Both the position numbers and the translations under genes were made by a program. From positions 7,169,501 to 7,233,500 of the forward strand of contig NZ_CP109583.1 in NCBI RefSeq assembly GCF_036250755.1: a stretch of DNA of 64,000 nt. The letters are read 5' to 3'. Positions 3,853 through 61,707 of the stretch are shown piece by piece. The notes beneath the pieces were generated by a model that searched no databases, had not been told where the DNA came from, and was given only the letters and a program-made list of their open reading frames with translations. How positions within the stretch are numbered: position 1 is the first letter of the stretch; each line of letters begins with the position of its first letter. Origin of the DNA: Streptomyces uncialis. GTDB lineage: Bacteria; Actinomycetota; Actinomycetes; Streptomycetales; Streptomycetaceae.

Positions 3853-3934
3853 ACCCTTTCCGGGTGGGCCGCAGCAAAACCCCCCGGAGCCCCCCTCGTA
3901 CGCGCCGCCTCCGGCCGCGCCCCGGGGTCCCCTG

Positions 3935-4885
3935 TGCTGGACGTACTTGTTCCCGTGCGGGCCGTTCGTGGGGTGCGCAGTTCCCCCGCGGGTCGCCTTC
4001 GCTCGCGCTTCCCAGGTCCGTCCGGCGGGGCGCACTTCGTTCCTGTGCCGTCGCTCGGTGGGTGCGCAGTTCCCCGCAGGTCGCCTTCGCTCGCGCCGCC
4101 GAGGTCTCCTGTGCCGGGCGCATTTGTCCCTGTGCCGTCGCTCGGTGGGTGCGCAGTTCCCCGCGCCCCTGGATGCTGCCCTCTTGCGGTCGCTCTTCGG
4201 GTGCGGGCCCGCCCTCGTCTGTGCGCAGTTCCCCGCGGGTCGCCTTCGCTTGCGCTTCCCAGGTCCGTCCGGCTGGGCGCATTTGTCCCTGTGCCGTCGC
4301 TCGGTGGGTGCGCAGTTCCCCGCGCCCCTGGATGCTGCCCTCTTGCGGTCGCTGTTCGGGTGCGGGCCCGCCCTCGTCTGTGCGCAGTTCCCCGCGGGTC
4401 GCCTTCGCTCGCGCCGCCGAGGTCTCCTGTGCCGGGCGCATTTGTTCCTGTGCCGTCGCTCGGTGGGTGCGCAGTTCCCCGCGCCCCTGGATGCCGCCCT
4501 CTTGCGGTCGCTGTTCGGGTGCGGGTCCGCCCTCGTCTGTGCGCAGTTCCCCGCGGGTCGCCTTCGCTTGCGCCGCCGAGGTCTGTCCGGCGGGGCGTAC
4601 TTCGTTCCTGTGCCGTCGCTCGTGGGTTTCGCGCAGTTCCCCGCGCCCCTGGATGCTGCCCCCTTGCGGTCGCTCTTCGGGTGCGGGTCCGCCCTCGTCT
4701 GTGCGCAGTTCCCCGCGGGTCGCCTTCGCTCGCGCTTCCGAGGTCTGTCCGGCGGGGCGCACTTCGTTCCTGTGCCGTCGCTCGGTGGGTGCGCAGTTCC
4801 CCGCGCCCCTGGGGTCGCGCCACTTGCGGTAGCCGTTCGGGTGCGGCTGGCCCTTGGTTGCTCGCGCAGTTCCCCGCGCCCCTTT
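3935..4885 (+). repeat. Array 1, left arm: 12 direct repeat units with GCGCAGTTCCCC
   Basis: The 12-mer GCGCAGTTCCCC starts at 3975, 4064, 4151, 4223, 4310, 4382, 4469, 4541, 4631, 4703, 4791 and 4864. Intervals alternate between about 72 and 87-90 bp, so the higher-order period is about 160 bp. The short interval carries CCTGGATGCTGCCC and CTCTTCGGGTGCGGG. The long one carries GTCGCCTTCGCT, GGTCCGTCCGG and GTGCCGTCGCTCGGTGGGTGC. The intervals are themselves conserved, so this is a tandem array, not CRISPR. The long open frames across it on both strands encode only repetitive peptides and are not treated as genes. It begins about 80 bp after the ctaB stop. Confidence 0.95.
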
Positions 4886-4965
4886 GGGGGCGCCACCTGG
4901 GGCTGTTCTCCGTCTGCGGGGACGGGGTTGAACCATCCTCCTCGTGCAGGCGCTCGGCTGCGGGA

Positions 4966-5125
4966 GGGGGTGGGCGGGAATCTCTGCTCGCAGACTCCGA
5001 TGCTCTTCAGTAGGACCACACGTACGTCGTACCGAGCGTGTCGGATCGAGGACGGAGAATCCCGACCGGCCCCGACCCGAAGAACAAGCAGAACGCGCCC
5101 CAAAGGGGCGCGGGGAACTGCGCGA
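4966..5125. other. Core element copy A, candidate structured RNA or recombination centre
   Basis: A 160-bp segment about 96% identical to 40444-40602. It sits where the repeat units switch orientation: GCGCAGTTCCCC on its left, GGGGAACTGCGC on its right. It can fold into nested helices: 4976-4984 with 5055-5063 (8 of 9 pairs), 4987-4990 with 5047-5050, and 4997-5000 with 5041-5044, around an apical loop. A further hairpin CGCCCC-AAA-GGGGCG overlaps its right end. On the minus strand it could encode a short peptide (VLLKSIGVCEQRFPP), but no start or ribosome site supports that. Function and transcribed strand are unknown. Confidence 0.6.
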
Positions 5126-5375
5126 AGACGAGAACCGGCCCGCACCCGACGAGCGACAGCAAGAGGCAGCATCCAGGGGCGCGGGGAACTGCGCACCCAC
5201 CGAGCGACGGGCGAGGAACGAAGTGCGTCCCGCCGGACAGACCCGGGAAGCGCAAGCGAAGGCGACCCGCGGGGAACTGCGCGAAACCCACGGGCGACGG
5301 CACAGGAACGAAGGGCGTCCCGTCGGACGGACCTGGGAGGCGCAAGCGAAGGCGGCCCGTGGGGAAGGCCACGTT
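5094..5375 (-). repeat. Array 1, right arm: inverted repeat units (GGGGAACTGCGC)
   Basis: GGGGAACTGCGC is found at 5112-5123, 5183-5194 and 5271-5282, with a degenerate unit near 5349. These are the reverse complement of the units at 3935-4885 and keep the same alternating spacing (71, then 88 bp). The array is therefore head-to-head around the core at 4966-5125. It ends about 30 bp before the promoter of the next gene. Confidence 0.92.
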
Positions 5376-5396
5376 CCCCCCGCCCCTACCCGTCGG

Positions 5397-5408
5397 TAGG
5401 CTCGGCTC
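5397..5408 (+). promoter_or_regulatory. TAGGCT -10 box giving a leaderless mRNA
   Basis: TAGGCT at 5397-5402 is followed by six bases and then the ATG at 5409. Transcription is expected to start at or next to the A of the start codon, and there is no Shine-Dalgarno sequence. The same arrangement recurs at several other genes in this window. Confidence 0.5.
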
Positions 5409-39868: not shown

Positions 39869-40108
39869 TCACGGCTGCTCGTCGTCAGCGTCCTCGGCGG
39901 TGTCCGGGTCGCGCGGCGGGCGCAGGCGCATGGCCTCGTCGATCCGCCCGTACTCGGCGAACGCGGCGCCGAGCGGGGTCGGGTGGCCTTCGCGGCCGAA
40001 CATCCGCAGCGGGTCGTAGGCCCGGACCTGGTTGGTGATGAGCGATCCGGCGACGCGGAGCATGTCCGGCCAGTGCGCGGCGATCCGCTTGAGGTTCACC
40101 TTGTTGCG
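39869..40108 (-). pseudogene. Tn3-family transposase, C-terminal remnant
   Basis: About 80 residues (NKVNLKRIAAHWPDMLRVAGSLITNQVRAYDPLRMFGREGHPTPLGAAFAEYGRIDEAMRL) match the C-terminal part of Tn3-type TnpA, including the WPDMLRVAGSL block and PTPLG..AEYGRI. The rest of the gene is missing. The fragment is cut exactly where a GCGCAGTTCCCC repeat unit begins (40109), with no open frame continuing. After the family block, the reading frame ends in an Asp/Glu/Arg tail unlike TnpA. It is a dead relic of a transposition event near the TetR module. Confidence 0.8.
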
Positions 40109-40380
40109 GCGCAGTTCCCCGCGCCCCTGAGGTCGCGCCCCTCAGGGTTCCTGTTCGGCTGCGGGTGTTCCTTGGTTGCTCGCGCAGTTCCCCGCGCCCC
40201 TGGGGTTCCCCACCTGGACGTACCTGTTCCTGTGCGGGTACGTCCGTGGGTGCGCAGTTCCCCGCGCCCCTGGATGCTGCCCCATTACGGTCGCTCTTCG
40301 GGTGCGGGCCGGTCCTCGTTTTTGCGCAGTTCCCCGCGCCCCTGAAGGGGCGCCCACCTGGGGCTGCCGTCCGTCTGCGG
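40109..40380 (+). repeat. Array 2, left arm: four direct units
   Basis: GCGCAGTTCCCC starts at 40109, 40192, 40252 and 40324, with the CCTGGATGCTGCCCC block between the last two. Same orientation as the left arm of array 1. The last unit with its flank (GGCGCCCACCTGGGGCTG) matches the last unit of array 1 (4864-4912). It begins abruptly inside the Tn3 transposase remnant. Confidence 0.92.
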
Positions 40381-40443
40381 GCTGTCAGCAACCGGGGCCG
40401 GGGTTCATACCCCCCTCCTCGCGCACCCGCCGGACTCACCGAA

Positions 40444-40602
40444 GGGGGTGGGCGGGAATCTCTGCTCGCAGACTCCGATGCTCTTCAGTAGGACCAGCGA
40501 ACGTCGTACCGAGCGTGTCGGATCGAGGACGGAGAATCCCGACCGGCACCGACCCGAAGAACAAACAGAACGCGCCCCAAAGGGGCGCGGGGAACTGCGC
40601 GA
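40444..40602. other. Core element copy B, candidate structured RNA or recombination centre
   Basis: About 96% identical to 4966-5125, with one single-base indel and a few substitutions, mostly in the apical part near 40496-40505. The stem segments are unchanged: GGGAATCTC 40454-40462 with GAGAATCCC 40532-40540, CTCG 40465-40468 with CGAG 40524-40527, CCGA 40475-40478 with TCGG 40518-40521. As in copy A, flanking repeat units change orientation here. About 60 bp between the last left-hand unit and the core are not conserved between copies. Confidence 0.6.
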
Positions 40603-40855
40603 AACCACCGAGCGACGGCACAGGAACGAAGTACGCCCCGCCGGACAGACCTGGAAAGCGCAAGCGAAGGCGACCCGCGGGGAACTGCGCGAAACCACCG
40701 AACGACGGCACAGGAACGAAGTGCGCCCAGCCGGACGGACCTGGGAAGCGCAAGCGAAGGGCGACCCGCGCAAAACCACCGAGCGACGGCACCGGAACGA
40801 AGTGCGTCCCGCCGGACGGACCTCAGAGGCGCAAGCGAAGGCGGCCCGCCACGAC
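40572..40855 (-). repeat. Array 2, right arm: inverted units ending in the MFS gene
   Basis: GGGGAACTGCGC occurs at 40589-40600 and 40679-40690, with a degraded unit near 40760-40780. Intervening blocks (GGAACGAAGT, CGCCGGACAGACCTG, GCGCAAGCGAAGGCG) match the right arm of array 1. The last block runs into the 3' end of the MFS gene and supplies its final codons and stop. Confidence 0.9.
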
Positions 40856-42028
40856 CAGTCCGGCCGAGCCCAGCGCGAGCAGCAGCACCCGGTGGTCCAC
40901 CCCCGCGACCAGCCCCGCGCCCACACCCAGCGCGACCGCGTTCGGCGCGAGCAGCAGCGTGTTCGCGGTGGCCACCGCACGGCCCAGGAACGCCTCGGGC
41001 ACCGCCCGCTGCACAGCGGTCAGCGCCGCGATCAGCACACACGGCAGCCCCGCCCCGACGGCCGCCGACGCCACCAGCGCCACCGACACGTCCGGCACCG
41101 CCCGCGCCGCGACCGCCACCGCGAACAGACCCGCCCCGTACGCCGCGAACCGCCGCTCGCCCAGTCGCCGCAGCAGTCGTCCGGCGACCGCTCCCACCGC
41201 GACCGACCCCACGCCCTGTGCCGTGTACAGCGCCCCCACCCAGCCCGGTGGCCGTCCGAGCCCCTCGTCCACCACGGCGAAGACGACCGCGCCGTTGACC
41301 CCGGCGAGCAGCATCACCGCCCCGCCGCCGACCAGCAGGGGCCGTAGCGCGGGACGGCCCCACAGCTCCCGCACCCCCTCGGCCACCGCGCCGAACCCCC
41401 GCGCCGTGCCCGGCTCCGGACGGGGTTCGTCCACCCGTACCCGCGCGTAGAGACCGGCCGCGAGGGCGAACAGCACCGCGGCGAGGACGGCCACCGCCGG
41501 GCCGCCGTACGCGGTGAACAGGCCCGCGCCGGCGAGCGGGGCGATCAGTTTCACCCCCTCGTTGGCGGTCGTCCGCAGCCCGTTGAAGTCGCCCAGCAGA
41601 TCCCGGTCCACGATCCGCGTGACCAGCGCGCCCTCCGCCGCGTCCTGGACGACACCGGTCGCGCCGTACAGCACCAGGACCGTGAACAGCAGCCACAGCC
41701 GGTCCGCCGAGTCCACCGCGCACAGGGTCAGGAGGAGCAGGGCGAGCGCCAGGTTCGAGCGGACCAGCAGGGGGTGGCGCCGGGTGCGGTCGGCCAGCGT
41801 GCCGAGCAGCGGGCCGAGCAGCACGGGCGCCCAGAGTGCGAAGGTGCACAGCGCCGCGAGGGCGTTCGATCCCGTGAGGTCCTTCACCCAGATCCCGGCG
41901 GTCAGCCACAGCAGCGACGCCCCGCATCCGGCGCCGACCACCCCGCCCAGATACAGCGCCGCGTCGCGGTCGCGCAGCACCCTGCCCGTCGCTCCGGTCC
42001 CGCCGGTCCCGCACTTCTCGCCTGTCAT
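40823..42028 (-). CDS. MFS transporter
   Basis: A 401-residue major facilitator with about 12 helices, of the enterobactin-exporter/MFS_3 type. The A-like motif GTLADRTRRHPLLVRSN between helices 2 and 3, LVTRIVDRDLLGDFNGLRTTANEGVKLIAPLAGAGLF, and a Gly-rich C-terminal half are seen. The last codons (GRLRLRL then TGA) are made of repeat-family DNA: CGCCTTCGCTTGCGC is the standard block, and the stop arises where other copies read CCTCCCAGG or similar. The native C-terminus may have been replaced. The substrate is unknown; there is no clear ribosome site before the ATG. Confidence 0.87.
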   Translation of the reverse strand: MTGEKCGTGGTGATGRVLRDRDAALYLGGVVGAGCGASLLWLTAGIWVKDLTGSNALAALCTFALWAPVLLGPLLGTLADRTRRHPLLVRSNLALALLLLTLCAVDSADRLWLLFTVLVLYGATGVVQDAAEGALVTRIVDRDLLGDFNGLRTTANEGVKLIAPLAGAGLFTAYGGPAVAVLAAVLFALAAGLYARVRVDEPRPEPGTARGFGAVAEGVRELWGRPALRPLLVGGGAVMLLAGVNGAVVFAVVDEGLGRPPGWVGALYTAQGVGSVAVGAVAGRLLRRLGERRFAAYGAGLFAVAVAARAVPDVSVALVASAAVGAGLPCVLIAALTAVQRAVPEAFLGRAVATANTLLLAPNAVALGVGAGLVAGVDHRVLLLALGSAGLVVAGRLRLRL

Positions 42029-42255: not shown

Positions 42256-43020
42256 ATGTCCACCCCGCCCAGCCCGCCCGCGCCGTTCGTCGACCTCACC
42301 TCCCAGGCCCGGTCGGTCGCCCGGCTCGCCGAGGGGGTCCGTGAGGACCAGCTCGACGCGCCCACCCCGTGCCCCGACTACGCGGTACGGCACCTCCTGG
42401 GCCATCTCGTCTCGCTGTCCGTCGCGTTCCGCGACGCGGCCCGGCGGGAGCTGGGGCCGACCACCGACACGTCCCCCGGCTCGTCCCTGCCCGAACTCCC
42501 CGCCGACTGGCGCGTGGCGCTGCCCGGGGCACTGGCCGAGATGGCCGAGGCGTGGCGCGACCCCGCCGCCTGGGAGGGGGAGACCCGCGCGGGCGGGGTG
42601 CCGCTGCCCGGTGCCGTCGCGGGGCTCGTCGCCGTGGACGAACTCGTCGTGCACGGCTGGGACCTGGCGCGGGCCACCGGCCAGGAGTACGCGCCCGACG
42701 AGGCGGCCCTGCGGGCGAGCGAGGCACTTCTGACCCCCGTCGAGGACCCGGCGGCCGACCCCACCGAGCAATCGGTCACCGAGGACCCCGCAGCCAAGGA
42801 CCCCGCAGCCAAGGACCCCGCAGCCAAGGACCCCGCAGCCAAGGACCCCGCAGCCAAGGACTCCGCCGCTAAGGACTCCGAAGACTCCGCAGGCGACCCC
42901 GCCGGTGACGCGTCCAGCGGTGCGGGGCTCTTCGGCCCGCCCGTGCCCGTCCCGGACGGCGCGCCCCTCCTGGACCGGGTCATCGGTCTCAGCGGGCGCG
43001 ACCCCGGATGGCGCGCCTGA
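42256..43020 (+). CDS. TIGR03086-type metal-binding protein (maleylpyruvate isomerase/DinB-like)
   Basis: A 254-residue protein with the DinB-like four-helix domain of the mycothiol-dependent maleylpyruvate isomerase group. Visible are SVARLAEGVREDQLDAPTPCPDYAVRHLLGHLVSLSVAFRDAA (metal His near residue 50) and AVDELVVHGWDLARATGQE with the second His pair. Near residues 176-206 an insert of DPAAK repeats separates the domain from a short C-terminal tail that matches the usual end of the family (FGPPVPVPDGAPLLDRVIGLSGRDPGW). The normal protein is about 190-200 residues, so the insert is extra. Its role is not known. Confidence 0.88.
   Translation: MSTPPSPPAPFVDLTSQARSVARLAEGVREDQLDAPTPCPDYAVRHLLGHLVSLSVAFRDAARRELGPTTDTSPGSSLPELPADWRVALPGALAEMAEAWRDPAAWEGETRAGGVPLPGAVAGLVAVDELVVHGWDLARATGQEYAPDEAALRASEALLTPVEDPAADPTEQSVTEDPAAKDPAAKDPAAKDPAAKDPAAKDSAAKDSEDSAGDPAGDASSGAGLFGPPVPVPDGAPLLDRVIGLSGRDPGWRA
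42784..42873 (+). repeat. 15-bp minisatellite, five perfect copies plus one degenerate
   Basis: GACCCCGCAGCCAAG is repeated exactly five times (42784-42858), then once with changes (42859-42873). It encodes Asp-Pro-Ala-Ala-Lys in frame. Copy number could vary without breaking the gene. Confidence 0.97.
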
Positions 43021-61477: not shown

Positions 61478-61707
61478 AGCGCCCCGAAAGGGGCGCGGGG
61501 AACTGCGCAAGAGCGAGGGCGGCCCGCACCCGAGGGACGACCGCACCAGGCAGCGCCCCCAAAGGGGCGCGGGGAACTGCGCAAAAGCGAGGGCGGCCCG
61601 CACCCGAAGGACGACCGCACCGGGCAGCGCCCCAAAGGGGCGCGGGGAACTGCGCAAAGACGAGAGCGGCCCACACCCGAGGGACTACCGCAAGGGGGCA
61701 GCATCCA
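61478..61707 (-). repeat. Array 3: three inverted units, ending in the cobalamin gene
   Basis: GGGGAACTGCGC at 61497-61508, 61571-61582 and 61643-61654, spaced 74 and 72 bp, each preceded by a CGCCCC-AA-GGGGCG-type hairpin. Only the short type of interval occurs here and there is no core element. The last block (ACCGCAAGGGGGCAGCATCC) overlaps the 3' end of the gene on the minus strand. Confidence 0.93.

What the first reader, a model, noticed from the sequence alone, without database searches (positions are those of the whole stretch)
4966..5125. Duplicated 160-bp core with a conserved nested stem at the orientation switch of two repeat arrays
The sequence occurs twice, 35.5 kb apart (second copy 40444-40602), about 96% identical, although neither lies in a gene. 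In both places repeat units point one way on the left and the other way on the right. Three helices can form (4976-4984/5055-5063, 4987-4990/5047-5050, 4997-5000/5041-5044), and nearly all differences between copies fall outside them. That suits a structured small RNA, a processed transcript, or the centre of a recombining or mobile repeat element. I recall similar short ORFs (KSIGVCEQRF) mis-annotated in other Streptomyces, which suggests a wide family.
Basis: partly seen in the sequence, partly recalled or inferred. Interest (0 to 1): 0.85.

Follow-up and report, generated by a model that had tools for sequence, protein, structure and literature searches.

The report
Recombining hairpin repeat family in Streptomyces
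The 160-base sequence is one of about 210 non-coding hairpin repeats scattered between the genes of one Streptomyces lineage, set between mirror-image repeat arrays, and comparing two strains shows the lower stem almost frozen while the loop, the arrays and sometimes the direction of the core are reshuffled.

Summary
All 176 copies examined are intergenic; 162 of 176 lie between arrays of a GC-rich unit with mirror orientation (995 of 998 units). The unit is widespread in Streptomyces (57 of 101 genomes with a match, 41 with ten or more). The core was found only here and in S. uncialis DCA2648, a strain of the same lineage. In 20 of 20 other species examined the flanking genes of copy 1 are adjacent, with neither unit nor core between them, so the block is an insertion. 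At 84 strict orthologous loci (flanks 99.3% identical) the lower stem differs at 3 of 3780 sites, the loop at 210 of 1512; the loop changed at 64 loci and array length at 64. At two further loci the core is inverted. No Y1 transposase match and no Rfam match. Best reading: a new BIME/REPIN-like composite repeat whose copies recombine freely around a constrained hairpin. Mobiliser, transcription and function are unknown. The recalled wide family is not supported.

The parts
4064..4890 (-). left array: 11 '<' units (GCGCAGTTCCCCGCG type) with spacers; about 0.5 kb shorter in S. uncialis
   Evidence: strain difference (L094 against window)
4930..4964 (+). 5' variable module next to the stem (232 of 2856 sites differ between strains over 84 loci)
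4965..5011 (+). core hairpin, 5' arm (AGGGGGTGGGCGGGAATCTCTGC...CTTCAGT)
5012..5030 (+). hypervariable apical segment (114 distinct forms in 176 copies; 210 of 1512 sites differ between strains)
5031..5085 (+). core hairpin, 3' arm (ACCGAGCG...GAATCCCGACCGG...GAAGAAC)
   Evidence: read from the sequence; part of the consensus fold
5086..5094 (+). 3' variable module
5095..5111 (+). GCGCCCC-AAA-GGGGCGC hairpin, conserved, terminator-like (function inferred)
5105..5390 (+). right array: '>' units at 5109, 5180, 5268 with spacers
3853..5408 (.). whole block between ctaB (name recalled) and the next gene; the gap is about 45-140 bases by eye in 20 other species
40443..40562 (+). second copy of the core hairpin in the window
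40109..40340 (-). left array of copy 2 ('<' units 40109, 40182, 40252, 40324)
40572..40822 (+). 3' hairpin and right array of copy 2 ('>' units 40586, 40676)

Best explanation
A lineage-specific, non-coding composite interspersed repeat of BIME/REPIN-like kind. Two mirror-image arrays of a GC-rich unit that is widespread in Streptomyces enclose a core of about 120 nt that folds into one long irregular hairpin with an interchangeable apical loop. SHOWN: about 210 copies, all 176 examined being intergenic; nearly strict mirror architecture; the whole block is an insertion relative to other species at the one site tested; between two strains, loop replacement, array growth and shrinkage, and core inversion, with the lower stem almost unchanged. 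INFERRED: the unit arrays, direct within an arm and inverted across the core, serve as homology for ordinary homologous recombination, which flips cores, changes array length and converts copies by short tracts, so the copies behave as one recombining population. INFERRED, weaker: the stem is kept because it works as a folded nucleic acid (RNA or single-stranded DNA), most likely in the element's own spread or upkeep, or as a tolerated two-way terminator at gene ends. The agent that first dispersed it is not identified.
For: Copy number. Intergenic 176 of 176; copies per intergenic gap 60/138 convergent, 101/445 tandem, 13/132 divergent (Fisher tests). Unit orientation 630:2 on the 5' side and 365:1 on the 3' side. 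Insertion: 20 of 20 relatives have neither unit nor core between the two genes. Strain comparison at 84 strict loci, flank identity 99.31%: lower stem columns 36-56 and 115-138 differ at 3/3780 sites, 3' hairpin 8/2436, loop 210/1512; loop changed at 64 loci, 34 of these S. uncialis loops occurring elsewhere among the 176 own copies; array length changed by over 20 bases at 64 of 84. Inverted cores at two further loci. Shuffling: all four combinations in 264 of 276 pairs of 24 chosen variable columns, near-zero r2 between most modules. Own copies depart from consensus at 5 of 7920 lower-stem sites against 825 of 3168 loop sites. Columns 57, 70, 107, 110 and 85 vary C/T opposite G, which keeps pairing.
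Against: No compensatory double change. The four basal pairs (paired in 77-91% of copies) and three pairs near the loop (76/103 88%, 80/99 89%, 83/96 65%) vary in ways that break pairing. Taken without selection, core columns outside the loop (34-80, 99-146) differ at 86/7980 sites between strains, slightly more than the flanks (0.69%), because allele columns such as 57, 107, 110, 114 and 139 are reshuffled; only the lower stem is slower than the flanks. The fold is not strand-specific over 22 copies (mean z -2.49 on +, -1.92 on -). Columns 57 and 107/110/114 stay linked (r2 0.41-0.45) although the loop between them is nearly unlinked to them, which plain conversion does not predict without epistasis or loop-only exchange. 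No mobiliser, target duplication or excision product identified; homologous recombination is inference.
Confidence: 0.65

Rival explanations
1. The core is a host-serving structured RNA element (small RNA, 3'UTR stabiliser or bidirectional terminator) and purifying selection at many sites keeps the stem.
For: Lower stem nearly invariant; C/T opposite G changes keep pairing on the + strand; convergent gaps enriched; the core ends in a GC-rich terminator-like hairpin.
Against: 60 of 174 copies lie antisense to both neighbours and orientation flips at two loci; about 210 copies in one lineage only; no compensatory changes. No transcript data and no promoter scan were available or run.
Confidence: 0.18
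2. A recent burst from a few masters with no constraint: the stem is uniform only because too little time has passed.
For: Lineage restriction; low private variation in the stem.
Against: At least 86 loci carry the core in both strains, so much of the dispersal predates their split; yet the lower stem differs at 3/3780 sites where the flank rate of 0.69% would give about 26, while loops of the same copies differ at 13.9%.
Confidence: 0.08
3. A true REPIN moved by a RAYT-type Y1 transposase acting on single-stranded DNA.
For: Hairpin with conserved arms and diverse middle; weak excess of T-type cores co-directional with replication (Fisher p 6e-4; permutation over the tested columns p 0.02).
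Against: 0 matches to Y1_Tnp (PF01797) in the own genome while 5 of 14 control genomes ring; the core is not a symmetrical REP doublet.
Confidence: 0.04
4. A dedicated invertible switch: the core is flipped on purpose, as in phase variation.
For: Two of 86 loci inverted between strains with flanks in place.
Against: Long inverted arrays suffice for homologous inversion; copies lie beside many different gene pairs. A recombinase gene was not searched for.
Confidence: 0.04

Closest known systems
REPINs (REP doublets forming hairpins; Bertels and Rainey 2011, PMC3116915, passages read)
   Same: Extragenic population of hairpins in one genome, conserved ends separated by a spacer.
   Different: REPINs are inverted doublets of short REPs associated with a RAYT gene; here a long asymmetric hairpin lies between arrays of a different unit and no Y1 transposase was found.
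BIMEs / REP clusters of enterobacteria (recalled)
   Same: Mosaics of oppositely oriented short palindromic units, mostly at gene ends.
   Different: A core of about 120 nt with a hypervariable loop at the switch point; unit orientation nearly strict on each side.
ERIC/IRU, BOX, NEMIS/Correia repeats (recalled; PMC2759123 on enterobacterial RU elements seen in a search listing only)
   Same: About 100-160-base non-coding imperfect palindromes in many intergenic copies; BOX also has modular repeated parts.
   Different: No sequence comparison with them was made; here there are mirror-image tandem arrays and rapid loop exchange at fixed loci between close strains.
GC-rich unit AGGGGCGCGGGGAACTGCGCG of Streptomyces
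   Same: The arrays are made of it.
   Different: Other species have the unit without this core; one (G059) has other hairpins at its array centres.

Membership tests
REPIN/RAYT | RAYT (Y1 tyrosine transposase, PF01797) in the genome | tested here: not met
   0 matches in the own genome, controls ring in 5 of 14
REPIN/RAYT | Two inverted copies of one short REP forming the hairpin | tested here: not met
   arms are long, imperfect and asymmetric
REPIN/RAYT | Extragenic, many near-identical copies | tested here: met
REPIN/RAYT | Excision intermediate in sequencing reads | not testable with these tools
   no reads available; at one locus S. uncialis lacks about 110 bases of the hairpin (L115)
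BIME | Oppositely oriented short palindromic units in mosaics at gene ends | tested here: met
   mirror arrays in 162 of 176; convergent gaps enriched, divergent depleted
BIME | Unit homologous to enterobacterial REP; binding of gyrase, IHF or Pol I | not tested
   no comparison or binding data
MITE | Terminal inverted repeats and target-site duplication shared with an autonomous element | tested here: inconclusive
   arrays are inverted, but exact ends and duplications could not be set because arrays vary; only one ancestral site was compared
Structured non-coding RNA family | Compensatory two-sided covariation | tested here: not met
   one-sided G-C/G-U changes only among kept pairs; most stem pairs never vary; some basal and apical pairs break
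Structured non-coding RNA family | Match to a known Rfam family | tested here: not met
   none at gathering score; one chance-level line
Structured non-coding RNA family | Transcription | not testable with these tools
   no expression data
Protein-coding gene (KSIGVCEQRF ORF) | Conserved reading frame | tested here: not met
   loop length differs between copies; core inverts
Diversity-generating retroelement | Reverse transcriptase and adenine-directed variation | not tested

The most novel reading that the evidence does not exclude
The core is an intragenomic replicator with a swappable loop cassette: a copying process that works through its folded form (RNA- or single-strand-templated) overwrites loops at existing sites without replacing the stems, so about 210 loci exchange loops while damaged stems are overwritten. 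The hint is that in 16 of 24 loop replacements of four or more bases the stem alleles on both sides stayed the same (two random copies share that haplotype with chance 0.33), and that stem alleles on the two arms remain linked across a nearly unlinked loop.
Probability: 0.1. Interest if true: 0.88.

Novelty: new variant of a known kind. Interest (0 to 1): 0.57.

Why it matters
Bacterial interspersed repeats are usually compared as static copies. Here two strains with 99.3% identical flanks show, at the same loci, a lower stem that hardly changes and a loop that is usually different: population genetics with recombination inside one genome. It is a natural assay for how repeats are exchanged, inverted and kept in Streptomyces. 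It also warns that ORFs called in such arrays are likely artefacts.

Tried and rejected
Rfam: nothing; the HIV_FS2 line is far below its cut-off. Plasmids, phages, viral contigs: no match. Weak blast hits in G014 and G062 (L040, L054 read) look like chance matches and were dropped. The five 3-mismatch hits in other Streptomyces were dropped because the reversed control also scores in two genomes.

G-quadruplex at the stem base: rejected as the conserved feature because the first G-run varies (columns 31-33). Protein coding: rejected (loop indels, inversion). Loop as a guide to neighbouring genes: 110 nine-base matches to own flanks against 98.8 +/- 10.9 permuted, no signal. Replication-strand bias: striking in the first cut (T-type p 6e-5 at 4.6 Mb; C-type none), weaker with dnaA as origin and after permutation (p 0.02); all copies together 101 of 176 co-directional, p 0.06; left open. 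Strand-specific folding: clear for the window copy, weak over 22 copies.

Missing cores between the strains: 14 rows were flagged, 88 junctions having been examined, and nine cases aligned; the output was cut, and among those I could read only L115 lacks the stem. A first, looser orthologue set (97 pairs, one dropped as gap-only) was replaced by the strict set of 84, with the same picture. Of 129 S. uncialis copies, 84 entered the strict set, two showed inversion, 43 were not used. In the looser mapping 25 of 129 found no own counterpart and four mapped without an own copy in the expected orientation (two of these are the inversions; L061 and L070 unresolved). The own stretches were chosen because they hold a core, so presence in both strains is partly built in; but 25 of 129 unmapped is about what the unfetched 35 of 211 own copies would give. 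Two copies with four edits were dropped from the 176; 17 exact copies were not fetched and 18 with 1-3 mismatches were not aligned. The 83-column 'stem set' (18/6972; 153 of 176 copies unchanged) was chosen as conserved in the same alignment, so one search gives contiguous, unselected columns instead.

Full report
WHAT IS THERE. The two window copies (4966-5125, 40444-40602) agree at 155 of 160 columns. The genome that holds the window (9,258,615 bases in 3 contigs) has 210 matches with at most 3 mismatches to the 23-base 5'-arm motif and 213 to a 24-base 3'-arm motif, none to the reversed controls. Of 211 counted with the C/T position left open, 193 match exactly (68 T; 125 C). I fetched stretches that merge to 140 segments (1.04 Mb) holding 176 of the 193 exact copies and analysed those.

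ANATOMY. The alignment of 176 copies shows long runs above 97% identity broken by variable modules: a 5' module, an apical segment of about 19 bases (most variable over about 11), a short module after the stem, and the arrays. RNAalifold gives one long irregular hairpin on the + strand, then a GCGCCCC/GGGGCGC hairpin. Pairs from 36/141 to 74/104 are kept in 99-100% of copies, but most never vary, so they say little. Five varying columns (57, 70, 85, 107, 110) change C/T opposite G, which keeps pairing; no pair has a two-sided change; four basal pairs are kept in only 77-91% and three near the loop in 65-89%. The window copy's + strand folds with z -3.34 (1 of 200 shuffles as good) and its - strand with z -1.05 (34 of 200); over 22 copies the means are -2.49 and -1.92. 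So the structure is plausible but not proven by covariation.

SURROUNDINGS. With a simple codon-usage gene caller of my own, 0 of 176 copies lie in genes. Of 174 with both neighbours called, 60 lie between convergent genes, 101 between tandem and 13 between divergent ones; set against the gene gaps in the same stretches this is 60/138, 101/445 and 13/132 (convergent against divergent p 3e-10). The stretches were chosen because they hold a core, so only the ratios count. Within 1.2 kb, 630 of 632 units on the 5' side point one way and 365 of 366 on the 3' side the other; 162 of 176 copies have both. Units without a core also occur in the window (18525, 36809, 47715, 61494-61641).

DISTRIBUTION. 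Of 392 Streptomyces genomes (own included; 380 of them at least 90% complete and at most 5% contaminated), only the own one has the core; five others have one 3-mismatch hit each and the reversed control hits two genomes. That strain is close to the window's (most of the longest matches 95-99.9% identical; unique flanks 99.3%). The array unit has a match in 57 of 101 genomes and ten or more in 41, with 1196 in the own genome and 855 in G059; the reversed control scores four hits in three genomes. In G059 mirror arrays flank different hairpins (only the first loci of that genome were read). So the mirror-array architecture is wider than this core.

INSERTION. At copy 1 the genes on both sides (ctaB and its neighbour; name recalled) are adjacent in 20 of 20 relatives that I picked from the list, with neither unit nor core between them and a gap of roughly 45-140 bases by eye, against 1556 bases here. 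Many relatives have a strong hairpin in the gap, and the window keeps what looks like its right arm (AAGGCCACG..CCCCGCC..TACCCGTCGGTAG), so the block may have entered a terminator (reading by eye). Relatives are distant (79-81% identity in the neighbour gene), so this dates the block only loosely, and arrays and core need not have arrived together.

DYNAMICS. At 84 strict orthologous loci (unique unit-free anchors on both sides; mean flank identity 99.31% over 1535 probes) the lower stem (columns 36-56, 115-138) differs at 3 of 3780 sites, the 3' hairpin at 8 of 2436, the loop at 210 of 1512, column 57 at 13 of 84, the 5' module at 232 of 2856, and array length by more than 20 bases at 64 of 84. 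All core columns outside the loop together differ at 86 of 7980, because a few allele columns are reshuffled; so it is the lower stem, not the whole core, that changes more slowly than the flanks. The loop is unchanged at 20 loci and changed at 64; 34 of these 64 S. uncialis loops occur in another own copy, close to the share of own copies with a twin (98 of 176). Over columns 81-98, 39 loci differ at one to three columns and 24 at four or more, so some change by point mutation is not excluded. At two further loci (own 5,925,565 and 6,155,655) the core is inverted while flanks and array orientation stay. Within the genome, 264 of 276 pairs of 24 chosen variable columns show all four combinations and linkage between most modules is near zero. 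This points to frequent exchange among copies rather than mutation alone: the loop changes about twenty times faster than the flanks.

MECHANISM. Shown: exchange, inversion, array change, constancy of the lower stem. Inferred: homologous recombination using the arrays as homology. At least 86 loci carry the core in both strains, so much of the dispersal predates their split; the lower stem nonetheless differs less than the flanks, so something besides recency keeps it. Selection on the folded stem (for the element's own upkeep or for a host role at gene ends) is my best guess. A puzzle remains: alleles on the two arms (57 with 107/110/114) stay linked (r2 0.41-0.45) across a loop nearly unlinked to them, and 16 of 24 larger loop replacements left them untouched (expected share 0.33). 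Either the arms are epistatic or loops can be exchanged alone.

COMPARISON. It works like BIMEs/REPINs and ERIC/BOX-type repeats (the latter recalled) but fails two defining features of REPIN/RAYT: no Y1 transposase match and no symmetrical REP doublet. Of PMC3116915 I read passages, of PMC8049555 the outline and abstract; other papers only as listings. I found no paper describing this repeat in searches, which cover open-licence PubMed Central only; sequence strings are rarely printed in full text, so this is weak.

VERDICT. Real, not chance, not a gene, not a wide Streptomyces family as far as 391 other genomes show; a new lineage-specific variant of a known kind of repeat with unusually visible recombination dynamics.

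Noticed in passing
40823-42028 (-): The predicted transporter gene ends inside the right array of copy 2: its last residues (...GRLRLRL) are encoded by repeat sequence.
   Followed up: no
39869-40099 (-): Short gene-like stretch just before the left array of copy 2, possibly a fragment.
   Followed up: no
18525, 36809, 47715, 61494-61641: Lone or tandem array units without a core in the same window.
   Followed up: partly
L338-L367 (genome G059): Another Streptomyces with 855 unit matches whose mirror arrays enclose different hairpins (GAGATGCGCAC..GTGCGCCATCTC and others): centres seem to differ by species.
   Followed up: partly
L115 against own 5,532,200: S. uncialis lacks about 110 bases, close to the hairpin stem, while the arrays stay: possible excision or deletion at a hairpin.
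   Followed up: partly
whole own chromosome (C1): The listed copies run from 0.92 to 7.75 Mb of 9.12 Mb with one at 8.43 Mb; the chromosome ends look nearly free of them (lists are capped).
   Followed up: no
42256-43020 (+): Predicted protein with a tandem DPAAK repeat (KDPAAKDPAAKD...).
   Followed up: no
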